Origin: Paragorgia papillata
Lineage: Eukaryota; Cnidaria; Anthozoa; Scleralcyonacea; Coralliidae
DNA: 64,000 nucleotides
Direction of reading: 5' to 3'
Assembly (NCBI GenBank): GCA_035771165.1
Contig: JAWNZC010000001.1
Location: 2,970,001 to 3,034,000 of the forward strand
Numbering within the stretch: position 1 is the first letter of the stretch; the number at the start of each line of letters is the position of its first letter. The notes under the pieces were generated by a model that searched no databases, was not told the origin of the DNA, and was given only the letters and a program-made list of their open reading frames with translations. Position numbers and translations under genes: made by a program. This document shows, piece by piece, positions 2,510-61,197 of this stretch.

Positions 2510-3308
2510 TATTGGAAATTGATATGAGATACATTTTTGTATCTGACTGCTGACCAGAAGGTTGTGGGTTTCAGTCTTGGTTTGAAACTCAGTATAATAC
2601 TGTAGCTTGAAGAACATTTCCACCAATTCTCATTGTATATATACATATTATATACATGTATATCATCATACTTGCACTTAGCAGTATGTATGTTATACAT
2701 CAAATTCAAGTAATATGTCTAAATCATCTGAGTCTGAGTACCTCAATAGTTAGAGCGTCTCACCGGTGTTCAGAAGCTATTTCTATTATTTCTGATATAA
2801 AAAATGTATTAATAACACCATAAATCCATAATAAGGAATTGGTATGGTAAATGTTGACATGACAAATCCGACAGAGCATTAAACGGTAAACATTTTAAGT
2901 TATAATTACACAATATGAGCGGCTGAACTGTATGAGCATTTTTAACTCAAGCTTAATATACGACTTATTCAATTCACACATCTACCTGTTCAGGTTTATC
3001 AACAATCTTTGATATATAAGCTGTTTAAGCTGAGAAAATTGATCTGAATGTTTATGTAAATCAGGACGAATTTGTATCCGATAATTTACAACACCTGATT
3101 AAACATTAATTTCTTTTAAATATTTTTCATTAATTATTAATGAATTGGATAATGTACATTACTGTACATGTATGATTGACATCTCAACAGATTTTAATTT
3201 GTCAAATGTGGCTTTTTCGTGCTTTCCCAACTTCTCGCGTGCACTCCGTAAATCGATGAGGCACGGCAAACCATGAACCATTTCTTAAGTCTGTCAAAAT
3301 CACATCTG
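2510..3308 (+). promoter_or_regulatory. class I leader of G1 with degenerate SINE head
   Basis: This block precedes all class I genes. It carries a tRNA-derived A-box-like stretch (CTCAATAGTTAGAGCGTCTC near 2742), an AT-rich core ATTAATTATTAATGAATTGG near 3130, and the leader ATG at 3273. In G2, G4, G7 and G8 the leader ends in CCG followed by the donor GTAAGAAG. Here the leader joins straight to coding sequence at 3308/3309. No clear TATA box was found; the start of transcription is not visible. Confidence 0.5.
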
Positions 3309-4676
3309 CTGAATATTCGTTGCGATTATTTCAACAGAGGCTGTCGTGAGCTTGTGCAGCTGGGTGATCTTGAACGTCACGTCAAAGATTGTGGGTTCAC
3401 TCCAGTGGTGTGTTCCAACGAAGGATGTCTTGTGGAGATCAACAAACGAGATCGAACTCACCACGAGACAGAAATTTGTGAGTTCAGAAAGGTGAAATGT
3501 CATACGTGCGCCGAAACGAGACAGGAGATGGATAAAGTCAAGACTAGCTTGATTGCTGTCCAGAACGAAATGGCGGAACTAAAAATGAATCACAAAACAA
3601 CACATGATAAGTTGGATGGAATGGAGATGAACTTGAAAGTAGTAAATGACAAGCTAGAGGACAATAAAAAGAATTTAACAGAAATGAAGGAACAGCTGGC
3701 AACACAACCAGAACAAATACGTGGCATTCAAAAGATGCAAGAGAAAATTATGAAAGAAATTGAAGAAACGAAAAGTGAGAGAGAGAAAGCGAAGCCCAAT
3801 GTAGTTATTGCAGGCCGTTATAAAGAGCACGAAACAGGAAATTCCACCGAAATCTTTAACTGGTCTAAGAAGTCGTGGACACAACTGCAACAAACCAAAG
3901 AACGTCGCGTCGGAGCATCTTCATTTGTTTATAAAAATCAAATTATTCTCACGGGGGGGTTTGCCGTTGATTTTTCTGATACTATGGAAAGTGTAAACAT
4001 CAGCCCGGATATGGATTCCGCACAATGGTTGGATTTTCCAGCCAATCTTCCTAGCAAGTTGCATGGACACAGCAGTGTAGTTTATAATGGACGGTTGATA
4101 GTAATAGGAGGGTTTGATGCTAGTGCATGTGAATACTCTGACAGTATTCATGAAGTTTCACTCAATCCTCCTCATACCAATAAGTTGTTAACTACAATGC
4201 CTGAAGCCATTCTGTTTCATGGTGCAAAATTATTCAACGACAAAATTTTTATAGCTGGGGGAAAGAAATCTGTAAACTCTAAAGATAGTGTTGATAGCGT
4301 CATAATGTACGATATTAACGAGAACGAATGTAAAGAAATGGCACCCCTTCCTTTTTCTGTGTCTGAAATGGCAACAGTAAGTTGGGGTGACAATGTAATT
4401 GTAATTGGCGGTGAAGACAAAGATGGTAAAGCGTTAAATACTGTTGTTATTTATAATGTTCAGTCAGAAAAGAGTCATATGTTACCTGCAATGAAGTATA
4501 AGAGGGAAGGATGTGCGGCGGTTGTTACTGGGAATGCCATTGTTGTAATGGGTGGGCAAGATGAGCGAAGAAACTTACTTAAGTCAGTTGAATCATTCAG
4601 TTTTGATCGCTATTCATGGGAAGAACTTCCCCCATTGAATGTAGCTCGATGGCGGGCTACTGCTGTAGCTTGGTAG
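3273..4676 (+). CDS. G1: RING-less TRAF-zinc-finger/coiled-coil/Kelch protein
   Basis: 467 aa. The first 12 residues (MNHFLSLSKSHL) come from the class I leader and run directly into LNIRCDYFNRGC, the point reached at residue 84 in the full-length genes, so the RING is gone while frame and ATG are kept (A at -3). Zinc-finger cysteines start at C17; the coiled coil follows, then six Kelch blades from about residue 178. Blade 1 has AGR in place of AGG, losing one Gly of the doublet. Blade-face residues differ from every other copy, for example FAVDF after the second GG and KKSVN after the fourth. Without a RING it should bind substrate but not ubiquitinate it, so a decoy or regulator role is possible (inference). 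The next downstream block is module C. Confidence 0.8.
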   Translation: MNHFLSLSKSHLLNIRCDYFNRGCRELVQLGDLERHVKDCGFTPVVCSNEGCLVEINKRDRTHHETEICEFRKVKCHTCAETRQEMDKVKTSLIAVQNEMAELKMNHKTTHDKLDGMEMNLKVVNDKLEDNKKNLTEMKEQLATQPEQIRGIQKMQEKIMKEIEETKSEREKAKPNVVIAGRYKEHETGNSTEIFNWSKKSWTQLQQTKERRVGASSFVYKNQIILTGGFAVDFSDTMESVNISPDMDSAQWLDFPANLPSKLHGHSSVVYNGRLIVIGGFDASACEYSDSIHEVSLNPPHTNKLLTTMPEAILFHGAKLFNDKIFIAGGKKSVNSKDSVDSVIMYDINENECKEMAPLPFSVSEMATVSWGDNVIVIGGEDKDGKALNTVVIYNVQSEKSHMLPAMKYKREGCAAVVTGNAIVVMGGQDERRNLLKSVESFSFDRYSWEELPPLNVARWRATAVAW

Positions 4677-4769: not shown

Positions 4770-5330
4770 AAGTGAAGTGAGATGAGTATTATTTGTTGAT
4801 GTATATCTTTGGAGGGTTGCGCATGCGCTTTCTGCTGACGATGTGTATAAAAAGAAGCAACATGTCCATGGGTAGCCTGCGTGCAGACGCCCAATTTTTT
4901 ATCCTTCCTTGGAAAATTCGGCTCTGCGCGCCGTCGATAATCGTGTTCCAGATGATAACCAGTGAGGAACCTGTCGGGAAACTTAATCGTAGTAAAAATA
5001 TTAATGCCCAACATAAAACACGAAATATAGCCATAAATAAGAATAATACTTATTAAAAAAGATGAACTAACGTTTCGTTGCATTACGCCACATGATCAGA
5101 GTGAGATAAGATACAGTTCCCTAGTTGACAATGAATAAATTAAACGTACAGAAAAAAATTATTTGGGCGAGCCCCCTAGTTAGAGAATCAAGCGCGGCGT
5201 TGTCTTTAACCATAAATTATGGTCCCTTTTCCTTATACGTGTTACAAAGTAACTGGTTTGAAACCTATGGGTATAATGGCCACCATTTTAAATATTATTT
5301 TATGTGCATCTAAATGCGTGCTTAGGAGTC
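4770..5330 (+). repeat. module C, copy 1
   Basis: Begins GTCAAGTGAAGTGAGATGAG and contains GCGCATGCGC followed by TATAAAAAG (4846-4854), which looks like a promoter core or LTR-type TATA box, then GGTAGCCTGCGTGCAGACGC. Copies follow G3 (17040), the LINE after G6 (43076) and, degenerate, G8 (61300). No convincing protein is encoded. Confidence 0.6.
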
Positions 5331-5333
5331 AAA

Positions 5334-5725
5334 GAGTTAAGCATTGAGATAGGTATTTAGCCCCTTGGCTACCAGCGGTCTTCCCTTGACGAGTAAAATC
5401 GTCTGGCCTTAGCCAGAGTAAAATACTAAAGGTGCGTCTACATGCGCACTTAGGAGTCAAAGGGTTAAGCATTGAGGTAGGTATTTAACCCCTTGACTAC
5501 CAGGGGTCTTCCCTTGAAGAGTAAAATCGTCTGGCGTTAGCCAGAGTAAAATACTAAAGTTGCGTCTACATGCGTGTTTAGGAGTCAAAGAGTTAAACAT
5601 TGAGATAGGTATTTAACCCCTTGACTACCAGGGGTCTTCCCTTGAAGAGTAAAATCGTCTGGCGTTAGCCAGAGTAAAATACTAAATGTGCGTCTACATG
5701 CGTGCTTAGGAGTCGAAGGGTTAAA
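5334..5725. repeat. 128-bp tandem repeat, about three units
   Basis: Units start with CCCCTTGACTACCAGGGGTC, at about 5360, 5490 and 5617, and each contains GTCTGGCGTTAGCCAGAG. Two units are present at 43655-43890 and one partial unit at 19130-19205, always after module C. Confidence 0.85.
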
Positions 5726-10509: not shown

Positions 10510-12120
10510 ATGGCATCATATGAGCAAGGTTACGAGGACGACCTGTTTGAAAGTCCGGTTAGTCAAAACTTTCACTGTCCAATTTGTCTCAACGTGTTCA
10601 AAGAACCAGTCATGTGCCAGAGAAACCAGCACTTTTTCTGTCGGTCTTGCATCACTCGACATCTGGAGAACTCGCCGACATGTCCTTCCTGTATGGAAGA
10701 ACTCGCATTGGAAACCTTAACTCAAGCTCCACGAATCTTGACGGGGTGTCTGTCTGAGCTGAATATTCGTTGCGATTATTTCAACAGAGGCTGTCGTGAG
10801 CTCGTGCAGCTGGGAGATCTTGAAAGTCACGTCAAGAATTGTGGGTTCACTCCAGCGGTGTGTTCCAACGAAGGATGTCTTGTGGAGATCAACAAACGAG
10901 ATCGAACTCAGCACGAGACAGAAATTTGTGAGTTCAGAAAAGTGAAATGCCATACCTGCGCCGAGACGAGACAGGACATGAGTAAAGTACAGAACGAAAT
11001 AGCGGAACTAAAAATGAATCTGAAGACAACACATGATAAGCTGGATGGAATGGAGATGAACTTGAAAGTAGTAAATGACAAGTTTGACAAAGTAGAGGAC
11101 AATTTAACAGAAATCAAGGAACAGCTGGCTGAACTGGCAACACTACCAGAACAAATACGTGATATTCACACGGTGCAAGAGAAAATGATGAAAGAAAGTG
11201 AAGGAATGAAAACTGAGAGAGAGAAAGTGAAGCCTAATGTAGTCATTGCAGGCGGTTATAAAGAGCAGAGGGCGGGAAATTTCGCCGAAATGTTCAACTG
11301 GTCTAAGAAGTCGTGGACACAACTGCAACAAACCAAAGAACGTCGCGCAGGAGCATCTTCATTTGTTTATACAAATCAAATTACTCTCACGGGGGGGTGG
11401 AATGCAGGCTTGAGTAATTCTGATACCATGGAAAGTGTAAACATCAGCCCGGATATGGATTCCATGCAATGGTTTGGTTTTCCTGCCAAACTTCCTGGCA
11501 AGTTGCAAGGACACAGCAGTGTAGTTTATAATGGACGGTTGATAGTAATAGGAGGGTATGATGGCAGTGAACGTAAATACTCTGACAGTATTCATGAAGT
11601 TTCACTCAATCCTCCTTATACCAATAAGTTGTTAACTAGAATGCAAGAACCCGGAAAGTTTTGTGGTTCAGAATTACTGAACGACAAAATTTTGATTGTT
11701 GGAGGAAGTAGAATCTTTAGCTCTGAAGATAGTGTTGATAGCGTCTTAATGTACGATATTAACAAGAACGAATGTAAAGAAATGGCGCCACTTCCTTTTG
11801 CTGTGTCTTTAATGGCAACAGTAAGTTGGGGTGACAATATAGTTGTAATAGGCGGTGCTGACAAAGATGGTAAAGTGTTAAATACTGTTGTTATTTATAA
11901 TGTTCAGTCAGAAAAGAGTCATATGTTACCTGCAATGAAATATAAGAGGAAAGGATGTGCGGCGGTTGTTACTGGGAATGCCATTGTTGTAATGGGTGGG
12001 CGAGATGAGCGAGGGAAGTACCTTAAGTCAGTTGAATCATTCAGTTTTGATCGCTATTCATGGGAAGACCTTCCCCCAATGAATGTAGCTCGAGTATTTG
12101 CTACTGCTGTTGCTTGGTAG
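10510..12120 (+). CDS. G2: RING/TRAF-zinc-finger/coiled-coil/Kelch E3 ligase
   Basis: 536 aa, used here as the reference member. RING ligands: C23, C26, C36, H41, C44, C47, C58, C61, with an unusual four-residue C36-H41 gap. TRAF-type zinc fingers: C88-x6-C95-x11-H107-x3-C111 and C118-x4-C123-x11-H135-x4-C140, then a C147/C150 pair. Coiled coil about 152-240. Kelch blades start at VVIAGG (about 243) and show six GG doublets; the last strand ATAVAW closes the ring with the first. RING plus Kelch predicts cytosolic ubiquitin transfer to propeller-bound substrates. The start ATG has A at -3 and G at +4 and is conserved in all RING-containing copies. Blade-face residues unique here include Q before GHS, L before MATVSW and VF in the closing strand. 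Confidence 0.92.
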   Translation: MASYEQGYEDDLFESPVSQNFHCPICLNVFKEPVMCQRNQHFFCRSCITRHLENSPTCPSCMEELALETLTQAPRILTGCLSELNIRCDYFNRGCRELVQLGDLESHVKNCGFTPAVCSNEGCLVEINKRDRTQHETEICEFRKVKCHTCAETRQDMSKVQNEIAELKMNLKTTHDKLDGMEMNLKVVNDKFDKVEDNLTEIKEQLAELATLPEQIRDIHTVQEKMMKESEGMKTEREKVKPNVVIAGGYKEQRAGNFAEMFNWSKKSWTQLQQTKERRAGASSFVYTNQITLTGGWNAGLSNSDTMESVNISPDMDSMQWFGFPAKLPGKLQGHSSVVYNGRLIVIGGYDGSERKYSDSIHEVSLNPPYTNKLLTRMQEPGKFCGSELLNDKILIVGGSRIFSSEDSVDSVLMYDINKNECKEMAPLPFAVSLMATVSWGDNIVVIGGADKDGKVLNTVVIYNVQSEKSHMLPAMKYKRKGCAAVVTGNAIVVMGGRDERGKYLKSVESFSFDRYSWEDLPPMNVARVFATAVAW

Positions 12121-14450: not shown

Positions 14451-14535
14451 TGTACGTTTGCGAGCTTGGTGTGATGTAACAGACGTTTGTTTTACGTTCA
14501 TCAAGCTAAATTACTCAGAAAAGATTTCTGATCCT

Positions 14536-15295: not shown

Positions 15296-16939
15296 ATGGC
15301 ATCATATGATCAAGGTTACGAGGACGACCGGTTTGAAAGTCCGGTTAGTCAAAACTTTCACTGTCCAATTTGTCTCAACGTGTTCAAAGAACCAGTCATG
15401 TGCCAGAGAAACCAGCACTTTTTCTGTTGGGCTTGCATCACGCGACATCTGGAGAACTCGCCGACATGTCCTTCCTGTATCGAAGAACTCACATTGGAAA
15501 CCTTAACTCAAGCTCCACGACTCTTGACGGGGTGTCTGTCTGAGTTGAATATTCGTTGTGATTATTTCAACAGAGGCTGTCGTGAGCTTGTGCAGCTGGG
15601 AGATCTTGAAAGTCACGTCAAAGATTGTGGGTTCACTCCAGTGGTGTGTTCCAACGAAGGATGTCTTGTGGAGATCAACAAACGAGATCGAACTCACCAC
15701 GAGACAGAAATTTGTGAGTTCAGAAAAGTGAAATGCCATACCTGCGCCGAGACGAGACAGGAGATGGATAAAGTCAAGACGAATTTGATGGCAGTACAGA
15801 ACGAAATAGCGGAACTTAATATGAATCAGAAGACAACACATGAAAAGCTGGATAAGCTGGATGGAATGGAGAGGAACTTGAAAGTAGTAAATGACAAGCT
15901 TGACAAGATGGAGGACATTAATAAGTCAAATTTAGCAGAAATCAAGGAACAGCTGGCAACACTACCAGAACAAATACGTGGTATTCAAATGGTGCAAGAG
16001 AAAATTATGAAAGAAATTGAAGGAACGAAAACTGAGAGAGAGAAAGCGAAGCTTAATGTAGTCATTGCAGGCGGTTATAAGGAGCAGGGAGCAGGAAATT
16101 CGGCCGAAATGTTTAAGTCGTCTAAGAAATCCTGGACACAACTGCAACAAACCAAAGAATATCGCGCAGGAGCATCTTCATTTGTTTATAAAAATCAAAT
16201 TACTCTCACTGGGGGATGGAATGCAGGCTTTGGTCATTCTGATACCATGGAAAGTGTAAACATCAGCCCAGATATGGATTCCACTCAATGGTTTGGTCTT
16301 CCTGCTAAACTTCCTAGCAAGTTGGAAGGACACAGCAGTGTAGTTTATAATGGACGGTTGATAGTAATAGGAGGGTATGATGGCAGTAAAGGTAAATACT
16401 CTGACAGTATTCATGAAGTTTCACTCAATCCTCCTTATACCAATAAGTTGTTAACTAGAATGCAAGAACCCAGAAAGTTTCATGGCGCAGAATTATTCAA
16501 CGACAAAATTTTTATAGCTGGAGGAAGTAGAACCATGGGCTCTACAGGTATTGTTGATAGCGTCATGATGTACGATATTAACAAGAATGAATGTAAACAG
16601 ATGCCGCCACTTCCTTTTGTTGTGTCTGAAATGGCAACAGTAAGTTGGGGTGACAATGTAATTGTAATAGGCGGTGTTGACAAAGATGGTGAAGCGTTAA
16701 ATACTGTTGTTATTTATAATGTTCAGTCAGAAAAGAGTCATTTGTTACCTGCAATGAAATATAAGAGGGGTGCATGTTCGGCAGTTGTTACTGGGAATGC
16801 CATTGTTGTAATGGGTGGGCTAGATGAGCGAGGAAACTGTCTTAAGTCAGTTGAATCATTCAGTTTTGATCGCTATTCATGGGAAGAACTTCCCCCATTG
16901 AATGACGCTCGATGGCGGGCTACTGCTGTAGCGTGGTAG
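15296..16939 (+). CDS. G3: RING/TRAF-zinc-finger/coiled-coil/Kelch E3 ligase
   Basis: 547 aa with all RING and TRAF-finger ligands present. The RING has CWAC where the other copies have CRSC. The coiled coil is longer than in G2 through an extra KLDKLDG repeat and an added DKMEDINKS stretch. Blade 1 carries FKSSKKSW in place of FNWSKKSW. Blade-face residues: Y in EYRAG, WNAGFGH after the second GG, E before GHS, TMGSTG after the fourth GG, and GAC in the sixth blade where the others have a charged residue or Gly followed by GC. It is flanked by a class II leader and module C. Inferred role as for G2, with a distinct substrate face. Confidence 0.92.
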   Translation: MASYDQGYEDDRFESPVSQNFHCPICLNVFKEPVMCQRNQHFFCWACITRHLENSPTCPSCIEELTLETLTQAPRLLTGCLSELNIRCDYFNRGCRELVQLGDLESHVKDCGFTPVVCSNEGCLVEINKRDRTHHETEICEFRKVKCHTCAETRQEMDKVKTNLMAVQNEIAELNMNQKTTHEKLDKLDGMERNLKVVNDKLDKMEDINKSNLAEIKEQLATLPEQIRGIQMVQEKIMKEIEGTKTEREKAKLNVVIAGGYKEQGAGNSAEMFKSSKKSWTQLQQTKEYRAGASSFVYKNQITLTGGWNAGFGHSDTMESVNISPDMDSTQWFGLPAKLPSKLEGHSSVVYNGRLIVIGGYDGSKGKYSDSIHEVSLNPPYTNKLLTRMQEPRKFHGAELFNDKIFIAGGSRTMGSTGIVDSVMMYDINKNECKQMPPLPFVVSEMATVSWGDNVIVIGGVDKDGEALNTVVIYNVQSEKSHLLPAMKYKRGACSAVVTGNAIVVMGGLDERGNCLKSVESFSFDRYSWEELPPLNDARWRATAVAW

Positions 16940-30123: not shown

Positions 30124-31755
30124 ATGGCATCATATGACCAAGGTTACGAAGACGACCGGTTTGAAAGTCCGGTTAGTCAAAACTTTCACTGTCCAATTTG
30201 TCTCAACGTGTTCAAAGAACCAGTCATGTGCCAGAGAAACCAGCACTTTTTCTGTCGGTCTTGCATCACGCGACATCTGGAGAACTCGCCGACATGTCCT
30301 TCCTGTATCGAAGAACTCACATTGGAAACCTTAACTCAAGCTCCACGAATCTTGACGGGGTGTCTGTCTGAGTTGAATATTCGTTGTGATTATTTCAACA
30401 GAGGCTGTCGTGAGCTTGTGCAGCTGGGAAATCTTGAAAGTCACGTCAAAGATTGTGGGTTCACTCCAGTGGTGTGTTCCAACGAAGGATGTCTTGTGGA
30501 GATCAACAAACGAGATCGAACTCACCACGAGACAGAAATTTGTGAATTCAGAAAAGTGAAATGTCATACCTGCGCCGAGACGAGACAGGAGATGGATAAA
30601 GTCAAGACGAATTTGATGACAGTGCAGAACGAAATAGCGGAACTGAAAATGAATCAGAAGACAACACATGATAAGCTGGATAAGCTGGATGGAATGGAAA
30701 TTAACTTGAAAGTAGTAAATGACAAGCTTGACGACAATAAGAAGAATTTAACAGAAATGAAGGAACACCTGGCAACACTACCAGATCAAATACGTGGTAT
30801 TCAAACGGTGCAAGAGAAAATGATGAAAGAAATTGAAGGAACGAAAAGTGTGAGCGAGAAAGCGAAGCCTAATGTAGTCATTGCAGGCGGTTATAAAGAG
30901 CACGAAGCAGGAAATTCCGCTGAAATCTTCAGCTGGTCTAAGAAGTCGTGGACACAACTGCAACAAACCAAAGAATATCGCGCAGGAGCATCTTCATTTG
31001 TTTATGAAAATCAAATTATTCTCACGGGGGGGTTCACCAACACTTTTTCTGATACTATGGAAAGTGTAAACATCAGCCCGGATATGGATTCCGCACAATG
31101 GTCGCATTTTCCAGCCAAACTTCCTAGCAAGTTGTATGGACATAGTACTGTAGTTTATAATGGACGGTTGATAGTAATGGGAGGTTTTGATCACGGTGAA
31201 GGTAAAGACTCCGACAGTATTCATGAAGTTTCACTCAATCCTCCTTATACCAATAAGTTGTTAACTAGAATGCAAGAACCCAATCTGTATCACGGCGCAG
31301 AATTATTCAACGACAAAATTTTTATTGTTGGAGGAAGTACAACCATTTTCTCTGAATATAGTGATTGTGTTGATAGCGTCAAGTTGTATGATATTAACAA
31401 GAACCAATGTAAAGCAATGGCGCCACTTCCTTCTGCTGTGTCTCAAATGGCAACAGTAAGTTGGGGTGACAATGTAATTGTAATAGGTGGTGTTGGCAAA
31501 GATGGTAACGTGTTAAATACTGTTGTTATTTATAATGTTCAGTCAGAAAAGAGTCATATGTTACCTGCAATGAAATATAAGAGGAGAGGATGTGCAGCGG
31601 TTGTTACTGGGAATGCCATTGTTGTAATGGGTGGGCAAGATGAGCGAGGAAACTTACTTAAGTCAGTTGAATCATTCAGTTTTGATCGCTATTCATGGGA
31701 AGAACTTCCCGCAATGAATGTAGCTCGATGGCGGGCTGCTGCTGTAGCTTGGTAG
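30124..31755 (+). CDS. G4: RING/TRAF-zinc-finger/coiled-coil/Kelch E3 ligase
   Basis: 543 aa, intact. Finger ligands are as in G2. The coiled coil has the doubled DKLDKLDG and DDNKKNLTE. Differences concentrate on the propeller: Y in EYRAG; FTNTF after the second GG; WSHF and Y before GHS; FDHGEGKD after the third GG; STTIFSEYSD after the fourth, two residues longer than elsewhere; Q before MATVSW; VGKDGN in blade 5. The blade 3 entry WSHFPAKLP and HSTV are shared only with G6. The poly(A) hexamer is AATGAA at 31824 in place of AATAAA. Confidence 0.92.
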   Translation: MASYDQGYEDDRFESPVSQNFHCPICLNVFKEPVMCQRNQHFFCRSCITRHLENSPTCPSCIEELTLETLTQAPRILTGCLSELNIRCDYFNRGCRELVQLGNLESHVKDCGFTPVVCSNEGCLVEINKRDRTHHETEICEFRKVKCHTCAETRQEMDKVKTNLMTVQNEIAELKMNQKTTHDKLDKLDGMEINLKVVNDKLDDNKKNLTEMKEHLATLPDQIRGIQTVQEKMMKEIEGTKSVSEKAKPNVVIAGGYKEHEAGNSAEIFSWSKKSWTQLQQTKEYRAGASSFVYENQIILTGGFTNTFSDTMESVNISPDMDSAQWSHFPAKLPSKLYGHSTVVYNGRLIVMGGFDHGEGKDSDSIHEVSLNPPYTNKLLTRMQEPNLYHGAELFNDKIFIVGGSTTIFSEYSDCVDSVKLYDINKNQCKAMAPLPSAVSQMATVSWGDNVIVIGGVGKDGNVLNTVVIYNVQSEKSHMLPAMKYKRRGCAAVVTGNAIVVMGGQDERGNLLKSVESFSFDRYSWEELPAMNVARWRAAAVAW

Positions 31756-34451: not shown

Positions 34452-36071
34452 ATGGCATCATATGAGCAAGGTTACGAGGACGACCGGTTTGAAAGTCCGG
34501 TTAGTCAAAACTTTCACTGTCCAATTTGTCTCAACGTGTTCAAAGAACCAGTCATGTGCCAGAGAAACCAGCACTTTTTCTGTCGGTCTTGCATCACGCG
34601 ACATCTGGAGAACTCGCCGACATGTCCTTCCTGTATGGAAGAACTCACATTGGAAACCTTAACTCAAGCTCCACGACTCTTGACGGGGTGTCTGTCTGAG
34701 TTGAATATTCGTTGCGATTATTTGAACAGAGGCTGTCGTGAGCTTGTGCAGCTGGGATATCTTGAACGTCACGTCAAAGATTGTGGGTTCACTCCAGTGG
34801 TGTGTTCCAACGAAGGATGTCTTGTGGAGATCAACAAACGAGATCGAACTCATCACGAGACAGAAATTTGTGTGTTCAGAAAAGTGAAATGTCATACCTG
34901 CGCCGAGACGAGACAGGAGATGGATAAAGTACAGAGCGAAATAGCGGAACTAAAAATGAATCACAAGACAACACATGATAAGCTGGATAAGCTGGATGGA
35001 ATGGAGCTGAACTGGAAAGTAGTAAATGACAAGCTTGACAAAATGGAGGACATTAATGGGAAGAATTTAACAGAAATCAAGGAACAGCTGACAACACTAC
35101 CAGAACAAATACGTGGTATTCAAACGGTGCAAGAGAAAATGATGAAAGAAATTGAAGGAACGAAAACTGACAGAGAGAAACCGAAGCCCAATGTAGTCAT
35201 TGCAGGCGGTTGTGAGGAGTGCGAAGCAGGAAATTCCGCCGAACTGTTTAACTGGTCTAAGAAGTCGTGGACGCAACTAAAACAAACCAAAGAAGATCGC
35301 GTAGGAGCATCTTCATTTGTTTATAAAAATCAAATTACTCTCACGGGGGGACACAGTGGCTTTGGTTATTCTGATACCATGGAAAGTGTAAACATCAGCG
35401 CGGATATGGATTCCACGCAATGGTTTGGTTTTCCTGCCAAACTTCCTAGCAAGTTGCATGGACACAGCAGTGTAGTTTATAATGGGCGGTTGATAGTAAT
35501 AGGAGGGTATGATGACAGTGAACGTAACTACTCTGACAGTATTCATGAAGTTTCACTCAATCCTCCTTATACCAATAAGTTGTTAACTAGAATGCAAGAA
35601 CCCACAAAGTTTCATGGTGCAGAATTATTCGACGACAAAATTTTTATTGGTGGAGGAAGTAAAACATATCACTCTAAAGATAGTGTTGATAGCGTCGTAA
35701 TGTACGATATTAAAAAGAACGAATGTAAAGCAATGGCGCCACTTCCTTTTGCTGTGTCTGAAATGGCAACAGTAAGTTGGGGTGACAATGTAATTGTGCT
35801 AGGTGGTGTTGACAAAGATGGTAAAGCGTTAAATACTGTTGTTATTTATAATGTTCAGACAGAAAAGAGTCATATGTTACCTGCAATGAAATATAAGAGG
35901 AAAGGATGTGCTGCGGTTGTTACTGGGAATGCCATTGTTGTAATGGGTGGGCGAGATGAGCAAGGAAACTACCTTAAGTCAGTTGAATCATTCAGTTTTG
36001 ATCGCTATTCATGGGAAGAACTTCCTGCAATGAATGAAGCCCGATCGCGGGCTACTGCTGTAGCTTGGTAG
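34452..36071 (+). CDS. G5: RING/TRAF-zinc-finger/coiled-coil/Kelch E3 ligase
   Basis: 539 aa from the conserved MASYEQGYEDD start. RING and TRAF-finger ligands are complete; the first TRAF finger has YLNRGC where the others have YFNRGC. Blade 1 begins GGCEECEAGNS, a Cys-containing form shared with G6 and G8. Blade 2 is HSGFGY, blade 3 YDDSERN, blade 4 reads IGGGSKTYHS with an added Gly, and the closing strand has NEARSR. The WFGFPAKLP entry groups it with G2 and G3, so the gene is a mosaic. Poly(A) hexamer AATGAA. Confidence 0.92.
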   Translation: MASYEQGYEDDRFESPVSQNFHCPICLNVFKEPVMCQRNQHFFCRSCITRHLENSPTCPSCMEELTLETLTQAPRLLTGCLSELNIRCDYLNRGCRELVQLGYLERHVKDCGFTPVVCSNEGCLVEINKRDRTHHETEICVFRKVKCHTCAETRQEMDKVQSEIAELKMNHKTTHDKLDKLDGMELNWKVVNDKLDKMEDINGKNLTEIKEQLTTLPEQIRGIQTVQEKMMKEIEGTKTDREKPKPNVVIAGGCEECEAGNSAELFNWSKKSWTQLKQTKEDRVGASSFVYKNQITLTGGHSGFGYSDTMESVNISADMDSTQWFGFPAKLPSKLHGHSSVVYNGRLIVIGGYDDSERNYSDSIHEVSLNPPYTNKLLTRMQEPTKFHGAELFDDKIFIGGGSKTYHSKDSVDSVVMYDIKKNECKAMAPLPFAVSEMATVSWGDNVIVLGGVDKDGKALNTVVIYNVQTEKSHMLPAMKYKRKGCAAVVTGNAIVVMGGRDEQGNYLKSVESFSFDRYSWEELPAMNEARSRATAVAW

Positions 36072-37954: not shown

Positions 37955-39598
37955 ATGGCATCATATGAGCAAGGTTACGAGGACGACCGATTTGAAAGTC
38001 CGGTTAGTCAAAACTTTCATTGTCGAATTTGTCTCAACGTGTTCAAAGAACCAGTCATGTGCCAGAGAAACCAGCACTTTTTCTGTCGGTCTTGCATCAC
38101 GCGACATCTGGAGAACTCGCCGACATGTCCTTCCTGCATTGAAGAACTCACATTGCAAACATTAACTCAAGCTCCACGAATCTTGACGGGGTGTCTGTCT
38201 GAGTTGAATATTCGTTGTGATTATTTCAACAGAGGCTGTCGTGAGCTTGTGCAGTTGGGAGATCTTGAAAGTCACGTCAAGGATTGTGGGTTCACTCCAG
38301 TGGTGTGTTCCAACGAAGGATGTCTTGTGGAGATCAACCAACGAGATCGAACTCAGCACGAGACAGAAATTTGTGAGTTCAGAAAGGTGAAATGTCATAC
38401 CTGCGCCGAGACGAGACAGCAGATGGATAAAGTCCATACGAATTTGATGGCAGTACAGAACGAAATTGCGGAAGTTAAAATGAATCAGAAGACTACACTT
38501 GAAAAGCTGGATAAACTGGATGGAATGGAAATGAACTTGAAAGTAGTAAATGGCAAGCTTGAGGACAATAAGAAGAATTTAACAGAAATGAAGGAACAGC
38601 TGGCTGAACTGGCTGCACTACCAGATCAAATACGTGGTATTCAAACGATGCAAGAGAAGATTGTGAAAGAAATTGAAGGAACGAAAACTGACAGAGAGAA
38701 AGAGAAGCCTAATGTAGTCATTGCAGGAGGTTGTGAAAAGTGCGAAGCAGGAGCAGGAAATTCCGCCGAACTGTTTAACTGGTCTAAGAAGTCGTGGACA
38801 CAACTGCAACAAACCAAAGAACGTCGCGTAGGAGCATCTTCATTTGTTTATAAAAATCAAAGTATTCTCACGGGGGGGTTCACCGTCAATGATTTTTCTG
38901 ATACTATGGAAAGTGTAAACATCAGCCCGGATATGGATTCCGCACAGTGGTCGCATTTTCCAGCCAAACTTCCTGGCAAGTTGTCTGGACATAGTACTGT
39001 AGTTTATAATGCACGGTTGATAGTAATGAGAGGTTTTGATGGCAGTGAGGATAAATACTCTGTCAGTATTCATGAAGTTTCACTCAATCCTCCTTATACC
39101 AATAAGTTGTTAACTAGGATGCAAGAACCCAATCTGTATCACGGCGCAGAATTATTCAACGACAAACTTTTGATTGTTGGAGGAAGTAGAACCATTTTCT
39201 CTAACGATAGTGTTGATAGCGTCGTAATGTACGATATTAACAAGAACGAATGCAAAGAAATGGCGCCACTTCCTTTTGCTGTGTCTCAAATGGCAACATT
39301 AAGTTGGGGTGACAATGTAATTGTAATAGGCGGTGTTGAAAAAGATGCTAAAGTGTTAAATACTGTTGTTATTTATAATGTTCAGTCAGAAAAGAGTCAT
39401 ATGTTACCTGCAATGAAATATAAGAGGAGAGGGTGTGCAGCGGTTGTTACTGGGAATGCCATTGTTGTAATGGGTGGGCGAGATGAGCAAGGAAACGACC
39501 TTAAGTCAGTTGAATCATTCAGTTTTGATCGCTATTCATGGGAGGAACTTCCCTCAATGAATGTAGCTCGATGGCGTGCTACTGCTGTAGCTTGGTAG
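37955..39598 (+). CDS. G6: RING/TRAF-zinc-finger/coiled-coil/Kelch E3 ligase
   Basis: 547 aa. The RING opens HCRIC where other copies have HCPIC. Blade 1 has CEKCEAGAGNS, with an AG duplication shared only with G8. Blade 3 has two departures from the propeller consensus: VYNARL for VYNGRL and MRGFDG for IGGYDG, so a Gly of the doublet is lost; SVS replaces SDS. Blade 5 is VEKDAK. These changes may weaken folding, yet the frame is fully open. The 3' UTR is followed not by a module but by non-array DNA and a LINE. Confidence 0.9.
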   Translation: MASYEQGYEDDRFESPVSQNFHCRICLNVFKEPVMCQRNQHFFCRSCITRHLENSPTCPSCIEELTLQTLTQAPRILTGCLSELNIRCDYFNRGCRELVQLGDLESHVKDCGFTPVVCSNEGCLVEINQRDRTQHETEICEFRKVKCHTCAETRQQMDKVHTNLMAVQNEIAEVKMNQKTTLEKLDKLDGMEMNLKVVNGKLEDNKKNLTEMKEQLAELAALPDQIRGIQTMQEKIVKEIEGTKTDREKEKPNVVIAGGCEKCEAGAGNSAELFNWSKKSWTQLQQTKERRVGASSFVYKNQSILTGGFTVNDFSDTMESVNISPDMDSAQWSHFPAKLPGKLSGHSTVVYNARLIVMRGFDGSEDKYSVSIHEVSLNPPYTNKLLTRMQEPNLYHGAELFNDKLLIVGGSRTIFSNDSVDSVVMYDINKNECKEMAPLPFAVSQMATLSWGDNVIVIGGVEKDAKVLNTVVIYNVQSEKSHMLPAMKYKRRGCAAVVTGNAIVVMGGRDEQGNDLKSVESFSFDRYSWEELPSMNVARWRATAVAW

Positions 39599-42709: not shown

Positions 42710-43075
42710 TTAATTAATTAATTGTTTATTTATTTATTTTCTTTATTTAAATAATTAATTAATTAATTCACAGCTTTCTTTTGGGGCGTGTGTGTGTGTG
42801 TGTGTGTGTGTGTGGGGGGGGGGGGGGGTGTTAGCGTTCTTTTTCTTTTATCTTTTACTTTAGATTCATTGTTTTTGTATTATCTTGTGCATGTGTATTT
42901 CCGTTCACTGTTAAACTTGTATGTTGTTATAATATTTGTAACAAAGGATCCGCAGTAATTGGCTTTAGCTGTTGCGGTATTCCTGCCTTGTATTACTTTT
43001 GTTGGAACAAATTGTATATATAATTAATGATATTATCAGGGCAAAGTTAAATAAAATAAAATAAAATAAATAAAA
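41234..43075 (+). pseudogene. 5'-truncated CR1/L2-like LINE with reverse transcriptase
   Basis: The frame is open from about 41241 to the stop at 42600-42602. It shows QHGFTPGKSCTTQL, VYLDMSKVFDKVNH, SGVPHGSILGPILFLLYVND, the catalytic FADD in TFADDTKLF, and C-terminal VWAPQ, ERVQRRATKYI and CVKCNCARSL. The endonuclease and the start of the RT are missing; the fragment begins at the TTAAC array. The 3' part has TTTATT runs, a TG run and a final TAAAA-type tail at 43045-43075, then module C resumes. Only ORF2 C-terminal functions could remain, so it is not autonomous. Confidence 0.85.
42612..42832. repeat. TTTA/TTAA microsatellite, TG run and G run
   Basis: TTTATTTATTTA runs to 42765, then (TG)n from 42787 and a run of 13 or more G to about 42828, all in the LINE 3' UTR. 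Confidence 0.9.
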
Positions 43076-43610
43076 ATGTCAAGTGAATTGACGTGAGATG
43101 AGTATTATTTGTTGATGCATATCTTTGGAGGGTTGCGCATGCGCTTTCTGCTGACAATGAGTGTATAAAAAGAAGCAACTTGTCCACGGGTAGCCTGCGT
43201 GCAGACGCCCAATTTTTTATCCTTCCTTGGAAAATTCGGCTCTGCGCGCCGTCGATAATCGTGTTCCAGATTATAACCAGTGAGGAACCTGACGGGAAAC
43301 TTAATCGTAGTAAAAATATTAATGCCCAACATAAATAAGAATAATACTTATTAAGAAAATGAACTAACGTTTCGTTCATTGCGCCACATGATCAGAGTGA
43401 GATAAGATACAGTTCCCTAGTTGACAATGAATAAATTAAACGTACAGAAAAAAATTATTGGGGTGAGCTCCCTGGTTAGAGAATCAAGCGCGGCGTTGTC
43501 TTTAACCATAAATTATGGTCCCTTTTCCTTATACGTGTTACAAAGTAACTGGTTTGAAACCTATGGGTATAATGGCCACCATTTTAAATATTATTTTATG
43601 TGCATCTAAA
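43076..43610 (+). repeat. module C, copy 3
   Basis: Close match to 4770-5330, directly after the LINE tail. It is the block that follows a Kelch 3' UTR elsewhere. Confidence 0.6.
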
Positions 43611-43611
43611 T

Positions 43612-48606: not shown

Positions 48607-48649
48607 GTGAGTAATGAAAATAATGTAGCTTCAAATATGTTGTAAAATA

Positions 48650-49770: not shown

Positions 49771-49786
49771 AATTGATAAATTGATT
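49771..49786. other. hAT excision footprint
   Basis: AATTGATA followed directly by AATTGATT. These are both target duplications of the 1324-2499 insertion with the element gone and the last base of the left copy changed from T to A, the usual hAT scar. Confidence 0.8.
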
Positions 49787-49789
49787 GAT

Positions 49790-50828
49790 ATTGGAAATTG
49801 ATATGAGATACATTTTTGTATCTGACTGCTGACCAGAAGGTTGTGGATTTCAGTCTTGGTTTGAAACTCAGTATAATACTGTAGCTTGAAGAACATTTCC
49901 ACCAATTCTCATTGTATATATACATATTATATACATGTATATCATCATACTTGCACTTAGCAGTATGTATGTTATACATCAAATTCAAGTAATATGTCTA
50001 AATCATCTGAGTCTGAGTACCTCAATAGTTAGAGCGTCTCACCGGTGTTCAGAAGCTATTTCTATTATTTCTGATATAAAAAATGTATTAATAACACCAT
50101 AAATCCATAATAAGGAATTGGTATGGTAAATGTTGACATGACAAATCCGACAGAGCATTAAACGGTAAACATTTTAAGTTATAATTACACAATATGAGCG
50201 GCTGAACTGTATGAGCATTTTTAACTCAAGCTTAATATACGACTTATTCTATTCACACATCTACCTGTTCAGGTTTATCAACAATCTTTGATATATAAGC
50301 TGTTTAAGCTGAGAAAATTGATCTGAATGTTTATGTAAATCAGGACGAATTTGTATCCGATAATTTACAACACCTGATTAAACATTAATTTCTTTTAAAT
50401 ATTTTTCATTAATTATTAATGAATTGGATAATGTACATTACTGTACATGTATGATTGACATCTCAACAGATTTTAATTTGTCAAATGTGGCTTTTTCGTG
50501 CTTTCCCAACTTCTCGCGTGCACTCCGTAACTCGATGAGGCACGGCAAACCATGAACCATTTCTTAAGTCTGTCAAAATCACATCCGGTAAGAAGTCGAC
50601 GTCACGACCTTTTAATCACGAGACTCTTCTGTATTTAGTTTCAATCAGATTATTCTTGTCTCGCAGAGGTAAAGTGAAAGTCAAATAGCGTGTCGAAATC
50701 TTCGTTACAGAAGGTCTGTTGATCTAAACGAGTCATTCAGTGAACGATATTCTTTTAATTAGTAACACAGAGTTGCAATGTAAGCAAGAGAACCTGGCTT
50801 TGGTATTTAAAAGCCAAAAGAAGTTAAG
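49790..50828 (+). promoter_or_regulatory. class I leader and 5' UTR of G7
   Basis: Near-identical to 2510-3308. Leader ATG at 50552 (MNHFLSLSKSHP), donor GTAAGAAG at 50588, acceptor TTGTCTCGCAG ending at 50666 (79-bp intron). A splice from the same donor to the AG at 51076-51077 would join the leader ATG in frame to LNIRCDYF and skip the RING. Confidence 0.55.
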
Positions 50829-52447
50829 ATGGCATCATATGATCAAGGTTATGAGGACGACCGGTTTGAAAGTCCGGTTAGTCAAAACTTTCACTGTCCA
50901 ATTTGTCTCAACGTGTTCAAAGAACCAGTCATGTGCCAGAGAAACCAGCACTTTTTCTGTCGGTCTTGCATCACGCGACATCTGGAGAACTCGCCGACAT
51001 GTCCTTCCTGTATGGAAGAACTCACATTGGAAACATTAACTCAAGCTCCACGAATCTTGACGGGGTGTCTGTCTGAGCTGAATATTCGTTGTGATTATTT
51101 CAACAGAGGCTGTCGTGAGCTTGTGCAGCTGGGAGATCTTGAAAGTCACGTCAAAGATTGTGGGTTCACTCCAGTGGTGTGTTCCAACGAAGGATGTCTT
51201 GTAGAGATCAACAAACGAGATCGAACTCACCACGAGACAGAAATGTGTGAGTTCAGAAAGGTGAAATGTCATACCTGCGCCGAGACGAGACAGGAGATGG
51301 ATAAAGTACAGACGAATTTGATGGCAGTACAGAAGGAAATAGCGGAACTGAAAATGAATCAGAAGACAACACATGATAAGCTGGATAAGCTGGATGGAAT
51401 GGAGATGAACTTGAAAGTAGTAAATGACAAGCTTGAGGACAATAAAAAGAATTTGGCGGAAATGAAGGAAAAGCTGGCAACACTACCAGATCAAATACGT
51501 GGTATTCAAACAATGCAAGAGAAAATGATGGAAGAAACGAAAACTGAGAGAGAGAAAGCGAAACCTAATGTAGTCATTGCAGGCGGTTTTAATAAGCACG
51601 AAACGGGAAATTCCGCCGAATCTTTCAACTGGTCTAAGAAGTCGTGGACACAACTGCAACAAACCAAAGAACATCGCACAGGAGTATCTTCATTTGTTTA
51701 TAAAAAACAAATTATTCTCACGGGGGGTTCGCTGGCAATGGTTTTTCTGATACCATGGAAAGTGTAAACATCAGCCCGGATATGGATTCCACACAATGGT
51801 TGGATTTTCCAGCCAAACTTCCTGGCAAGTTGTATGGACACAGCAGTGTAGTTTATAATGGACGGTTGATAGTAATAGGAGGGTATGATGTCAGTGAACG
51901 TAAAGACTCTGACAGTATTCATGAAGTTTCACTCAATCCTCCTTATACCAATAAGATGTTAACTAGAATGCAAGAACCCATTGTGTATCATGGTGCAGAA
52001 TTATTCAACGACAAAATTTTTATTGTTGGAGGAAGTAGAATCATTGACTCTAAAGATAGTGTTGATAGTGTGGTAATGTACGATATTAACAAGAATGAAT
52101 GTAAAGAAATGGCACCACTTCCTTTTGCTGTGTCTAAAATGGCAACAGTAAGTTGGGGTGATAATGTAATTGTAATAGGCGGTGTTGACAAAGATGGTGA
52201 AGAGTTAAATACTGTTGTTATTTATAATGTTCAGACAGAAAAGAGTCATATGTTACCTGCAATGAAATATAAGAGGGGAGGATGTGCGGCGGTTGTTACT
52301 GGGAATGCCATTGTTGTAATGGGTGGGCTAGATGAGCAACGAAACTTACTTAAGTCAGTTGAATCATTCAGTTTTGATCGCTATTCATGGGAGGAACTTC
52401 CCCCAATGAATGACGCCCGATGGTTGGCTACTGCTGTAGCTTGGTAG
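50829..52447 (+). pseudogene. G7: RING/TRAF/Kelch gene with frameshift in blade 2
   Basis: Frame 1 (50829-51767) encodes the RING, both TRAF fingers, the coiled coil and blade 1, then runs out after 312 aa. Frame 2 (from 51755 to 52447) encodes the rest of the propeller. The break is at the G tract 51722-51727: six G here where G1, G4, G6 and G8 have seven, at the codons for the Thr-Gly-Gly of blade 2. The coiled coil lacks a short KEIEG segment. Either a one-base loss inactivated the propeller, or this is a homopolymer sequencing error. The translated 312-aa product would keep ligase domains but lose substrate binding. Confidence 0.8.
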
Positions 52448-58920: not shown

Positions 58921-58959
58921 AGAATAAACCTTAAATATTTTAAGGTACACAGTCCGAAC

Positions 58960-59574
58960 GGCCAAACTGTATGAGCATTTATAACGCAAGTGGAATATAT
59001 GACTTATCCAATTCACACATCTACCTGTTCAGCTTTATCAACAATCTTTGAAGTATAAGATGTTTAACCTGAGAAAATTGATCGGAATGTTTATCTAAAT
59101 CAGGACGAATTTCTATCCGATTTGCAACACCTGATTAAACATTCATTTAAATATTTTCATTAATTATTAATGAATTGGATAATGTACATTACTGTACATG
59201 TATGACACCTCAACAGATTTTAATTTCTTAAATTCGTTTTTTTTGTGCTCTCCCAACTTCTCGCGTGCATCCATAACTCGATGAGGCACGCCAAACCATG
59301 AGCCATTTCTTACGTCTGTCAAAATCACATCCGGTAAGAAGTCGACGTCACGACCTTTTAATCACGAGACTCTTCTGTATTTAATTTCAATCAGATTATT
59401 CTTGTCTGGCAGAGGTAAAGTGAAAGTCAAATAGCGTGTCGAAATCTTCGTTGCAGTAGGTCTGTTGATCTAAACGAGTCATTCAGTGAACGATATTCTT
59501 TTAATTAGTAACCCAGAGTTGCAATGTAAGCAAGAGAACCTAGCTTTGTTATTTAAAAGCCAAAAGAAGTTAAG
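58960..59574 (+). promoter_or_regulatory. class I leader and 5' UTR of G8
   Basis: Leader ATG at 59298 (MSHFLRLSKSHP), donor GTAAGAAG at 59334, acceptor TTGTCTGGCAG ending at 59412 (79-bp intron). The first Kozak-like ATG after the intron is the G8 start. Confidence 0.5.
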
Positions 59575-61197
59575 ATGGCATCGTATGATCTAGGTTACGA
59601 GGACGACCGGTTTGAAAGTCCGGTTAGTCAAAACTTTCACTGTCCAATTTGTCTCAACGTGTTCAAAGAACCAGTCATGTGCCAGAGAAACCAGCACTTT
59701 TTCTGTCGGTCTTGCATCACGCGACATCTGGAGAACTCGCCGACATGTCCTTCCTGTATCGAAGAACTCACATTGGAAACCTTAACTCAAGCTCCAAGAA
59801 TCGTGACGGGGTGTCTGTCTGAGCTGAATATTCGTTGTGATTATTTCAACAGAGGCTGTCGTGAGCTTGTGCAGCTGGGAGATCTTGAAAGTCACGTCAA
59901 AGATTGTGGGTTTACTCCAGTGGTGTGTTCCAACGAAGGATGTCTTGTGGAGATCAACAAACGAGATCGAACTCACCACGAGACAGAAATTTGTGAGTTC
60001 AGAAAAGAGAAATGCCATACTTGCGCCGAGACGAGACAGCAGATGGATAAAGTACAGAACGAAATTGCGGAACTTAAAATGAATCAGAAGACTAAACTTG
60101 AAAAGCTGGATAAACTGGATGGAATGGAAATGAACTTGAAAGTAGTAAATAACAAGCTTGAGGACAATAAGAAGAATTTAACAGAAATGAAGGAACAGCT
60201 GGCTGAACTGGCAACACTACCAGATCAAATACGTGGTATTCAAACGATGCAAGAGAAGATTGTGAAAGAAATTGAAGGAACGAAAACTGACAGAGAGAAA
60301 GAGGAGCCTAATGTAGTCATTGCAGGCGGTTGTGAAGAGTGCGAAGCAGGAGCAGGAAATTCCGCCGAACTGTTTAACTGGTCTAAGAAGTCGTGGACAC
60401 AACTGCAACAAACCAAAGAACGTCGCGAAGGAGCATCTTCATTTGTTTATAAAAAACAAATTATTCTCACGGGGGGGTTCACCGACAATGATTTTTCTGA
60501 TACTATGGAAAGTGTAAACATCAGCCCGGATATGGATTCCACACAATGGTTGGATTTTCCAGTCAAACTTCCTAGCAAGTTGTGTGGACACAGCAGTGTA
60601 GTTTATAATGGACGGTTGATAGTGATAGGAGGGTATGATGGCAGTGAAAGTAAATACTCTGACAGTATTCATGAAGTTTCACTCAATCCTCCTTTTACCA
60701 ATAAGCTGTTAACTAGAATGCAAGAACGCAATCTGTATCACGGTGCAGAATTATTCAACGACAAAATTTTTATTGTTGGAGGAAGTAGAACCGTTGACTC
60801 TGCAGATAGTGTTGATAGCGTCATGATGTACGATATTAACAAGAAGGAATGTAAAGAAATGGCGCCACTTCCTTTTGCTGTGTCTCAAATGGCAACAGTA
60901 AGTTGGGGTGGCAATGTAATTGTAATAGGTGGTGTTGACAAAGATGGTAAAGTGTTAAATACTGTTGTTATTTATAATGTCCAGTCAGAAAAGAGTCATA
61001 TGTTACCTGCAATGAAATATAAGCGGAAAGGATGTGCGGCGGTTGTTACTGGGGATGCCATTGTTGTAATGGGTGGACTAGATGAGCGAGGAAACGTACT
61101 TAAGTCAGTTGAATCATTCAGTTTTGATCGTTATTCATGGGAAGAACTTCCCACAGTGAATGACCCCCGATGGTTGGCTACAGCTGTAGCTTGGTAG
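59575..61197 (+). CDS. G8: RING/TRAF-zinc-finger/coiled-coil/Kelch E3 ligase
   Basis: 540 aa, intact. N-terminus MASYDLGYEDD. TRAF-finger end reads RKEKCHTC where others have RKVKCHTC. The linker before blade 1 is EKEEPN. Blades 1 and 2 (CEECEAGAGNS, FTDNDF) resemble G6; WLDF matches G7 and G1; blade 3 (YDGSESK, C before GHS) is its own; the blade 4 entry MQERNLYHG is like G4/G6. The closing strand has NDPRWL. The 3' UTR diverges from the others after TTTTTGTAT, with an added A-run before AATAAA at 61275. Confidence 0.92.
   Translation: MASYDLGYEDDRFESPVSQNFHCPICLNVFKEPVMCQRNQHFFCRSCITRHLENSPTCPSCIEELTLETLTQAPRIVTGCLSELNIRCDYFNRGCRELVQLGDLESHVKDCGFTPVVCSNEGCLVEINKRDRTHHETEICEFRKEKCHTCAETRQQMDKVQNEIAELKMNQKTKLEKLDKLDGMEMNLKVVNNKLEDNKKNLTEMKEQLAELATLPDQIRGIQTMQEKIVKEIEGTKTDREKEEPNVVIAGGCEECEAGAGNSAELFNWSKKSWTQLQQTKERREGASSFVYKKQIILTGGFTDNDFSDTMESVNISPDMDSTQWLDFPVKLPSKLCGHSSVVYNGRLIVIGGYDGSESKYSDSIHEVSLNPPFTNKLLTRMQERNLYHGAELFNDKIFIVGGSRTVDSADSVDSVMMYDINKKECKEMAPLPFAVSQMATVSWGGNVIVIGGVDKDGKVLNTVVIYNVQSEKSHMLPAMKYKRKGCAAVVTGDAIVVMGGLDERGNVLKSVESFSFDRYSWEELPTVNDPRWLATAVAW

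What the first reader, a model, noticed from the sequence alone, without database searches (positions are those of the whole stretch)
3273..61197. Array of RING/TRAF/Kelch ligases with hypervariability confined to the ligand-binding face of the propeller
In all eight genes the propeller backbone is nearly constant, while the same two spots in each blade vary: the residue just before the inner strand and the residues 1-7 after the GG doublet. Before GHS in blade 3 the eight genes have H, Q, E, Y, H, S, Y, C (codons cat, caa, gaa, tat, cat, tct, tat, tgt), between an invariant ttg and gga. Before MATVSW: E, L, E, Q, E, Q, K, Q. Before the blade 6 strand: E, K, G, R, K, R, G, K. Position 6 after the third GG: C, R, G, G, R, D, R, S. 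Established knowledge: in human KEAP1 the equivalent positions (S508, S555, S602 before the strand; Y334, R483, Y525, Q530, Y572 after GG) contact substrate. Inference: the cluster is a diversified substrate-recognition repertoire joined to one conserved ubiquitin-ligase module, plausibly an innate-immune or self/non-self system.
Basis: partly seen in the sequence, partly recalled or inferred. Interest (0 to 1): 0.92.

Follow-up and report, generated by a model that had tools for sequence, protein, structure and literature searches.

The report
Coral ubiquitin-ligase array with hypervariable face
A large cluster of closely related genes, probably from a soft coral, encodes ubiquitin-tagging proteins whose engine stays constant while the surface that should grip the target has been driven to change, a pattern known from immune recognition genes of other animals.

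Summary
Eight same-strand copies of a RING + TRAF-type zinc finger + Kelch gene lie at 3273-61197; six are intact, g1 lacks the RING, g7 is frameshifted. The four residue lists are exact. On an AlphaFold2 model substrate-face loops have pN/pS 1.01, against 0.41 (opposite face) and 0.43 (strands). At 18 positions set by KEAP1 register it is 3.16. A codon model with one tree per blade gives 2dlnL 55.6, null maximum 7.85 in 60 simulations; 15 of 16 selected sites are on that face. The array continues beyond the window: 82 matches in the host genome, 79 of 978 candidates scored. Thirteen intact neighbours outside the window repeat the result (ratio 2.35; 25 of 27 sites); of nine gene groups tested, five are significant. 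Among 117 outside relatives, the 30 most variable propeller sites are all on that face. Positive selection on the target-binding face is well supported; an immune, finTRIM-like role is the best inference but untested; surface allorecognition is unlikely. All 20 named relatives listed are octocorals.

The parts
3273..4676 (+). g1: N-terminally truncated copy; zinc fingers, coiled coil and Kelch kept, RING (residues 1-83) absent; ORF begins in sequence equivalent to the leader of other copies
10510..12120 (+). g2: intact RING-TRAF zinc finger-coiled coil-Kelch gene, one coding exon
15296..16939 (+). g3: intact copy, reference for the model (547 aa). RING 15362-15478, TRAF-type zinc fingers 15548-15730, coiled coil about 15755-16045, six-blade Kelch 16052-16936
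30124..31755 (+). g4: intact copy
34452..36071 (+). g5: intact copy
37955..39598 (+). g6: intact copy; 96-98% identical to g8 over residues 170-325, then 86-95%
50829..52447 (+). g7: copy interrupted by a 1-nt frameshift in a G run near 51720, at the GG of blade 2; pseudogene or sequencing error
59575..61197 (+). g8: intact copy
16325..16327 (+). Example hypervariable codon (g3 residue 344, KEAP1 N414 register; H,Q,E,Y,H,S,Y,C in g1-g8)
50588..50666 (+). Putative leader intron of g7 (GTAAG donor, CAG acceptor), similar in g2-g8; motif reading only, no transcript seen
43072..43609 (+). Remnant of the 3' flank of a lost copy (83% identical to the g3 flank), no coding part found

Best explanation
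This is part of a large, tandem, birth-and-death family of TRAF-like RING E3 ubiquitin ligases in which a six-blade Kelch propeller takes the place of the TRAF/MATH domain. RING, zinc fingers and coiled coil form the constant engine (E2 recruitment and oligomerisation, inferred from fold). Loops on one propeller face bind the target, as in KEAP1 and KLHL12. Copies arise by duplication and recombination of DNA segments and are driven apart at the target-contact positions by positive selection. The targets are most likely fast-evolving foreign proteins (viral or microbial) inside the cell, which the ligase marks with ubiquitin, as TRIM5alpha and finTRIMs are thought to do. Shown: anatomy, face-specific positive selection, recombination, recurrence elsewhere in the genome and in other corals. 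Inferred: ligase activity, target binding, foreign targets.
For: RING and Kelch models pass Pfam cut-offs in the 3 full-length copies scanned. Residues 4-152 match TRAF6 RING-zinc-finger structures (5vo0, E 8.1e-11). The propeller model matches KLHL12 and KEAP1 (TM-score on target 0.93). 7 of 8 RING zinc ligands are invariant in 123 sequences, the eighth is kept in 122. Face pN/pS 1.01 vs 0.41 and 0.43. KEAP1-register sites 3.16, bootstrap P 0.0003; 3.99 with the six intact genes, 2.85 with four disjoint pairs. Per-blade-tree test 2dlnL 55.6 vs null maximum 7.85 in 60. Independent codon data: 13 intact neighbours outside the window 2.35 (0 of 2000 bootstraps at or below 1), 2dlnL 89.4 vs null maximum 3.85 in 30. 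117 relatives; 14 of 14 contig sets (11, 3). Zinc fingers 0.18, RING without g1 0.37. Recombination: 0 of 1000 permutations as low as observed.
Against: Nothing here shows expression, ligase activity, a target or induction by infection. Of nine gene groups tested outside the window the KEAP1-register ratio exceeds 1 in eight but is significant (bootstrap P below 0.05) in five; the most diverged group gives 1.00, with synonymous sites near saturation. In group E the model sites, only 60 on the face, so there the confinement is looser. Strand site 424 is called selected. In the D. gigantea set the two faces hardly differ (0.42 vs 0.40). Positive selection also fits other conflicts. No conflict-free Kelch paralogue family was run as a control.
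Confidence: 0.6

Rival explanations
1. Endogenous substrate receptors: copies diversified to degrade different host proteins (like KLHL paralogues), with no pathogen involved.
For: Kelch faces of KLHL paralogues bind host proteins (established knowledge); fold match to KLHL12 and KEAP1.
Against: Divergence is recent (propeller dS about 0.14) and pN is three times pS at contact positions. All 69 full-length copies examined in this genome have different 18-residue signatures. Stable host targets would predict conserved faces between orthologues, which was not tested.
Confidence: 0.22
2. Relaxed constraint or decaying duplicates: loops vary because they matter least.
For: Two of eight window copies are damaged; loops are generally freer than strands.
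Against: Opposite-face loops are as conserved as strands (0.41 vs 0.43); contact positions exceed 1 also with damaged copies left out and in independent copies; core pN 0.280 exceeds total divergence of the flanks, 0.081 and 0.102, though flanks may be constrained.
Confidence: 0.04
3. Locally targeted mutation or conversion from donor cassettes (as in antigenic variation) makes the variability, rather than selection.
For: Copies are mosaics; Nei-Gojobori pS is higher at the 54 core sites than in the rest of the propeller (0.170 vs 0.120), likewise in cluster A. In group D same-residue codon differences are also higher in the core (0.129 vs 0.074).
Against: Counting only codon pairs that keep the amino acid, core and backbone are close in clusters A (0.073 vs 0.067), C (0.092 vs 0.078) and E (0.053 vs 0.051) and the core is lower in B (0.022 vs 0.041). 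No library of propeller cassettes was seen in the window.
Confidence: 0.06
4. Conflict with transposable elements, or gamete/mating conflict, drives the diversification instead of microbes.
For: Reverse transcriptase ORFs lie between the copies; both conflicts can produce positive selection (established knowledge).
Against: No link was tested; transposons between genes are ordinary in such genomes.
Confidence: 0.08

Closest known systems
finTRIM (ftr) family of teleost fish
   Same: Large clustered RING-ligase family; B30.2 recognition domain under positive selection in variable loops, congruent with TRIM5alpha; recombination detected (PMC2657112, passages seen).
   Different: RING-B-box-coiled coil-B30.2, vertebrate; here TRAF-type zinc fingers and a Kelch propeller, cnidarian.
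TRAF6 and other TRAF proteins
   Same: RING then TRAF-type zinc fingers, aligning with TRAF6 structures over residues 4-152.
   Different: The C-terminal MATH domain is replaced by Kelch.
KEAP1 / KLHL12 (BTB-Kelch CUL3 adaptors)
   Same: Six-blade Kelch propeller with BC and DA loops on one face.
   Different: Those recruit CUL3 through BTB/BACK (established knowledge); here the RING is in the same chain.
C. elegans F-box and MATH gene expansions
   Same: Expanded ubiquitin-ligase adaptors, reported to have positively selected substrate-binding domains, many induced by infection (PMC5392922, passages seen, citing earlier work).
   Different: Cullin adaptors, not RING ligases; other recognition domains.

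Membership tests
RING-type E3 ubiquitin ligase | C3HC4 zinc ligands in canonical spacing | tested here: met
   C23, C26, C36, C44, C47, C58, C61 in 123 of 123 and H41 in 122 of 123 aligned proteins; RING models above Pfam cut-off in the 3 full-length proteins scanned. g1 lacks it.
RING-type E3 ubiquitin ligase | Ubiquitin transfer activity | not testable with these tools
   needs biochemistry
TRAF family | RING followed by TRAF-type zinc fingers | tested here: met
   TRAF6 match over residues 4-152. The Pfam zf-TRAF model is listed for only 2 of 4 proteins, below its cut-off.
TRAF family | Coiled coil | tested here: inconclusive
   helices 150-176 and 225-242 in a low-confidence part of the model; no coiled-coil prediction was run
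TRAF family | C-terminal MATH (TRAF-C) domain | tested here: not met
   C terminus is Kelch; TRAF-like, not a TRAF
TRIM / finTRIM | B-box after the RING | tested here: not met
   no B-box model among the Pfam families listed for 4 proteins at E 0.001
TRIM / finTRIM | B30.2 recognition domain | tested here: not met
   Kelch propeller
BTB-Kelch (KLHL) | BTB and BACK domains | tested here: not met
   none among the Pfam families listed
BTB-Kelch (KLHL) | Six-blade Kelch propeller | tested here: met
Works like finTRIM/TRIM5alpha | dN/dS above 1 concentrated on the ligand-binding face | tested here: met
   (weaker in some groups)
Works like finTRIM/TRIM5alpha | Binds and restricts a pathogen | not testable with these tools
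   no expression or binding data

The most novel reading that the evidence does not exclude
Octocorals carry a germline-encoded intracellular repertoire of ready-made degraders: one constant TRAF-type ligase joined to scores, perhaps hundreds, of propellers (82 matches in this genome with 79 of 978 candidates scored) whose binding face is rich in Ser, Arg, Tyr and Lys, rather like an antibody surface, and differs in all 69 copies examined. They recognise foreign proteins and send them to the proteasome or raise a TRAF-like alarm, with RING-less copies as decoys or regulators. It would be a further scaffold, beside B30.2 and MATH/F-box, independently recruited for this job.
Probability: 0.4. 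Interest if true: 0.86.

Novelty: new variant of a known kind. Interest (0 to 1): 0.75.

Why it matters
If right, the strategy of TRIM5alpha and finTRIM (fixed ubiquitin ligase, selected recognition surface) arose separately on a Kelch propeller in corals, and the residues to test are named here. Relatives are labelled in databases with unrelated names (KEAP1, NRDP1, RING finger 151-like, influenza virus NS1A-binding protein-like, kinase), so the family may have gone unnoticed. The propeller is also a natural example of what protein designers do with Kelch scaffolds: varied loops on a fixed core.

Tried and rejected
Decay of duplicates was rejected. False signal from recombination was considered: mosaicism is real, so the codon test was repeated with one tree per blade and a parametric null, and tree-free pair counts were used. 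A MAFFT alignment of KEAP1 to g3 was misaligned in several blades, so KEAP1 positions were mapped by register from the GG doublets. The 18 positions were fixed from KEAP1 but after the window pattern had been seen; the copies outside the window are the independent test. The circular-shift test is weak (6 of 294 shifts reach the observed value), as expected for a six-fold repeat. A RING ratio of 0.46 wrongly included spurious g1 columns; the value without g1 is 0.37. The KEAP1 contact list is recalled; an interaction table in PMC12863475 (passages) includes Arg415, Arg483, Ser508, Tyr525, Ser555, Ala556, Tyr572 and Gly603, with no occurrence of Tyr334 or Ser602. A viral-contig scan gave no relative. 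Only the best 120 of 1245 and of 1069 hits were listed, so the taxonomic limit of the family is unknown. Three of the 120 (P0017, P0052, P0104) were left out of alignment A1, which held 117 outside and 6 window proteins. Of the ten paper searches, eight aimed at this family and two at analogues; none listed a description of it, but one search listed 20 of 57 papers and the library lacks most subscription journals. My idea that the g1 junction is a spliced one is weakened by two other RING-less copies with different junctions.
Full report
What is there. The window (64 kb, no Ns, GC 34-41% in 4-kb blocks) holds eight same-strand copies of one gene, g1-g8, each with one coding exon, between 3273 and 61197. 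The six intact copies encode 536-547 residues: a C3HC4 RING, TRAF-type zinc fingers, a probable coiled coil and a six-blade Kelch propeller. g1 lacks residues 1-83 including the RING; g7 carries a frameshift in a G run near 51720. Similarity between copies extends into the leader and 3' flank, in some pairs for several hundred bases or more, so segmental duplication is likelier than retroposition (inference). A 3'-flank remnant at 43072-43609 and a 41-base coding match at 63960-64000 are traces of further copies.

The rest of the genome. The window is C1:2970001-3034000 of a 617.9-Mb assembly. The g3 protein gives 82 matches there at E 0.001, with only 79 of 978 first-look candidates scored, so this is a lower bound. 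The window's array continues to about 3.206 Mb; other clusters lie on C1 near 2.04, 3.44-3.51, 3.88-3.90, 5.28-5.35, 5.54-5.63 and 5.83-5.85 Mb, and more diverged copies on C21, C149, C156 and C421. Repeated attempts to count the family with a diverged copy did not complete.

Host. The first three database relatives are 61-63% identical. Of 218 listed proteins in three searches, 20 carry an organism name, all from Paramuricea clavata or Dendronephthya gigantea, both Octocorallia. The host is therefore probably an octocoral; the species is not identified. The 1245 matches include any Kelch proteins that pass; only 120 were seen.

Structure. An AlphaFold2 model of g3 on a 123-sequence alignment has mean pLDDT 83.8; ten-residue blocks from residue 251 average 87-98. 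The best Foldseek matches include designed Kelch proteins, KLHL12 and KEAP1. Strands of the model define BC and DA loops (the face that binds targets in KEAP1 and KLHL proteins, established knowledge) and AB and CD loops (opposite face).

Where variation lies. By Nei-Gojobori counts over all pairs, BC+DA loops have pN 0.151, pS 0.150; AB+CD loops 0.049, 0.121; strands 0.046, 0.107. The hottest register is three residues before strand A (mean 0.94 non-synonymous differences per codon pair) and positions +1 to +7 after GG (0.49-0.82), falling to 0.11 at +8. Zinc fingers 84-153 have pN/pS 0.18, RING 9-83 without g1 0.37.

Selection in the window. At 18 positions fixed by KEAP1 register (GG+1, GG+6, and 15 before the first G of GG or its C-terminal equivalent) pN is 0.314, pS 0.099, ratio 3.16 (bootstrap P 0.0003); at 54 core positions 1.65 (P 0.0022); in the rest of the propeller 0.43. 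With the six intact genes: 3.99, 1.64, 0.44; with four disjoint pairs: 2.85, 1.50, 0.43. A codon mixture model written here gives 2dlnL 109 on one tree. These are home-made implementations, not PAML or HyPhy; in the simulations trees were held fixed and two branch scales tried.

Independent codon test. Of 70 loci then in hand, 69 are full length and open and one (L031) was dropped. Thirteen intact neighbours of the same array outside the window give 2.35 at the 18 positions (0 of 2000 bootstraps at or below 1), 0.39 on the opposite face and 0.50 in strands. Groups B to I give 3.13, 2.65, 1.55, 2.97, 1.44, 1.49, 1.25 and 1.00; bootstrap P is below 0.05 in B, C, E and G, above in D, F, H and I; group I is near saturation (pS 0.51). 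Opposite-face ratios are 0.10-0.61 in the nine groups. The per-blade-tree test gives 2dlnL 89.4 for the thirteen (25 of 27 sites on the face; null maximum 3.85 in 30), 22.8 for B (15 of 16; 4.82 in 20), 39.2 for C (9 of 9; 5.72 in 20) and 64.5 for E (60 of 94; 3.39 in 20); the other groups were not run. In B and E the best branch scale lay at the edge of the grid tried, and E probably overcalls sites. Codon differences that keep the amino acid are about as frequent in the core as in the backbone in A, C and E, rarer in B and more frequent in D, which speaks mostly against targeted mutation.

Replication in other corals. In 117 outside proteins the 30 most variable propeller positions are all in BC or DA loops (background 45%); window and outside variability correlate (Spearman 0.48 over the propeller, 0.62 within the face). 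In 11 of 11 sets of 3-8 proteins sharing a contig length the face differs more than the opposite face (summed: core 52%, opposite face 11%, RING and zinc fingers 5%), and in 3 of 3 further sets, hardly so in the D. gigantea set (0.42 vs 0.40). The window shows 49%, 11% and 4%. There are 121 distinct 18-residue signatures among 123 aligned proteins and 69 among 69 genome copies.

Reading. The constant half looks like a working TRAF-type RING ligase; the variable face sits where KEAP1 holds its target. Fast change driven by selection at contact residues in a tandem family with birth, loss and recombination is what finTRIMs show in their B30.2 domain (PMC2657112, passages) and what is reported for nematode F-box and MATH adaptors (PMC5392922, passages). 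Recognition and ubiquitination of fast-changing foreign proteins inside the cell is the likeliest function; that step is inference. The absence of a signal peptide or membrane span in g3 speaks against surface allorecognition.

Membership. By tested features it is a RING ligase with a TRAF-like N terminus; it is not a TRAF (no MATH), not a TRIM (no B-box, no B30.2 found) and not a KLHL (no BTB/BACK found). It works like finTRIM without being one.

Noticed in passing
3273-3330; L071 (C1:3063400-3065410); L072 (C1:3457100-3459110): Three RING-less copies with an otherwise open frame (g1 467 residues, L071 frame 467, L072 frame 465) have three different junctions, each joining near residues 84-91: the RING seems to have been lost independently at least three times while zinc fingers and Kelch were kept. 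Possible decoys or regulators.
   Followed up: partly
2500-3306 and 49779-50585: g1 upstream is 99.6% identical to g7 upstream, then jumps 491 bases from the putative leader splice donor to codon 84.
   Followed up: partly
50552-50666 and equivalents in g2-g8: Leaders of g2-g8 share a GTAAG donor and a CAG acceptor about 80 bases apart; two different upstream sequences occur, one in g2, g4, g7, g8 and one in g3, g5, g6.
   Followed up: partly
63960-64000: 41 bases matching the coding region near g3 residue 485, with no match upstream: a truncated further copy may follow.
   Followed up: no
13766-14491 (-), 41232-42602 (+), 53890-55549 (-): Retrotransposon-like ORFs between the copies; Pfam reverse transcriptase in those at 41232-42602 and 53890-54882, no Pfam match in the other two pieces.
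   Followed up: partly
14531-14603 (-), 33656-33729 (-), 22343-22415 (+), 45933-46005 (+): tRNA or tRNA-like genes; those at 14531 and 33656 lie upstream of g3 and g5 inside the duplicated stretch.
   Followed up: no
27790-28885, 17622-18046, 41033-41232, 5304-5724 and 43600-43895: Tandem arrays: 56-base unit x19, 59-base unit x7, TTAAC x40 (100% matches) abutting a reverse transcriptase ORF, and a 128-base unit in two places.
   Followed up: no
1-1322 and 48445-49777: 98% identical blocks upstream of g1 and g7, with about 1.2 kb at 1323-2499 present only in the g1 flank: a recent segmental duplication.
   Followed up: no
RING part of g2-g8: Synonymous divergence in the RING (pS 0.047) is less than half that of the propeller (0.129), as if gene conversion kept the 5' end alike; in clusters C to E of the genome the RING is not lower.
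   Followed up: partly
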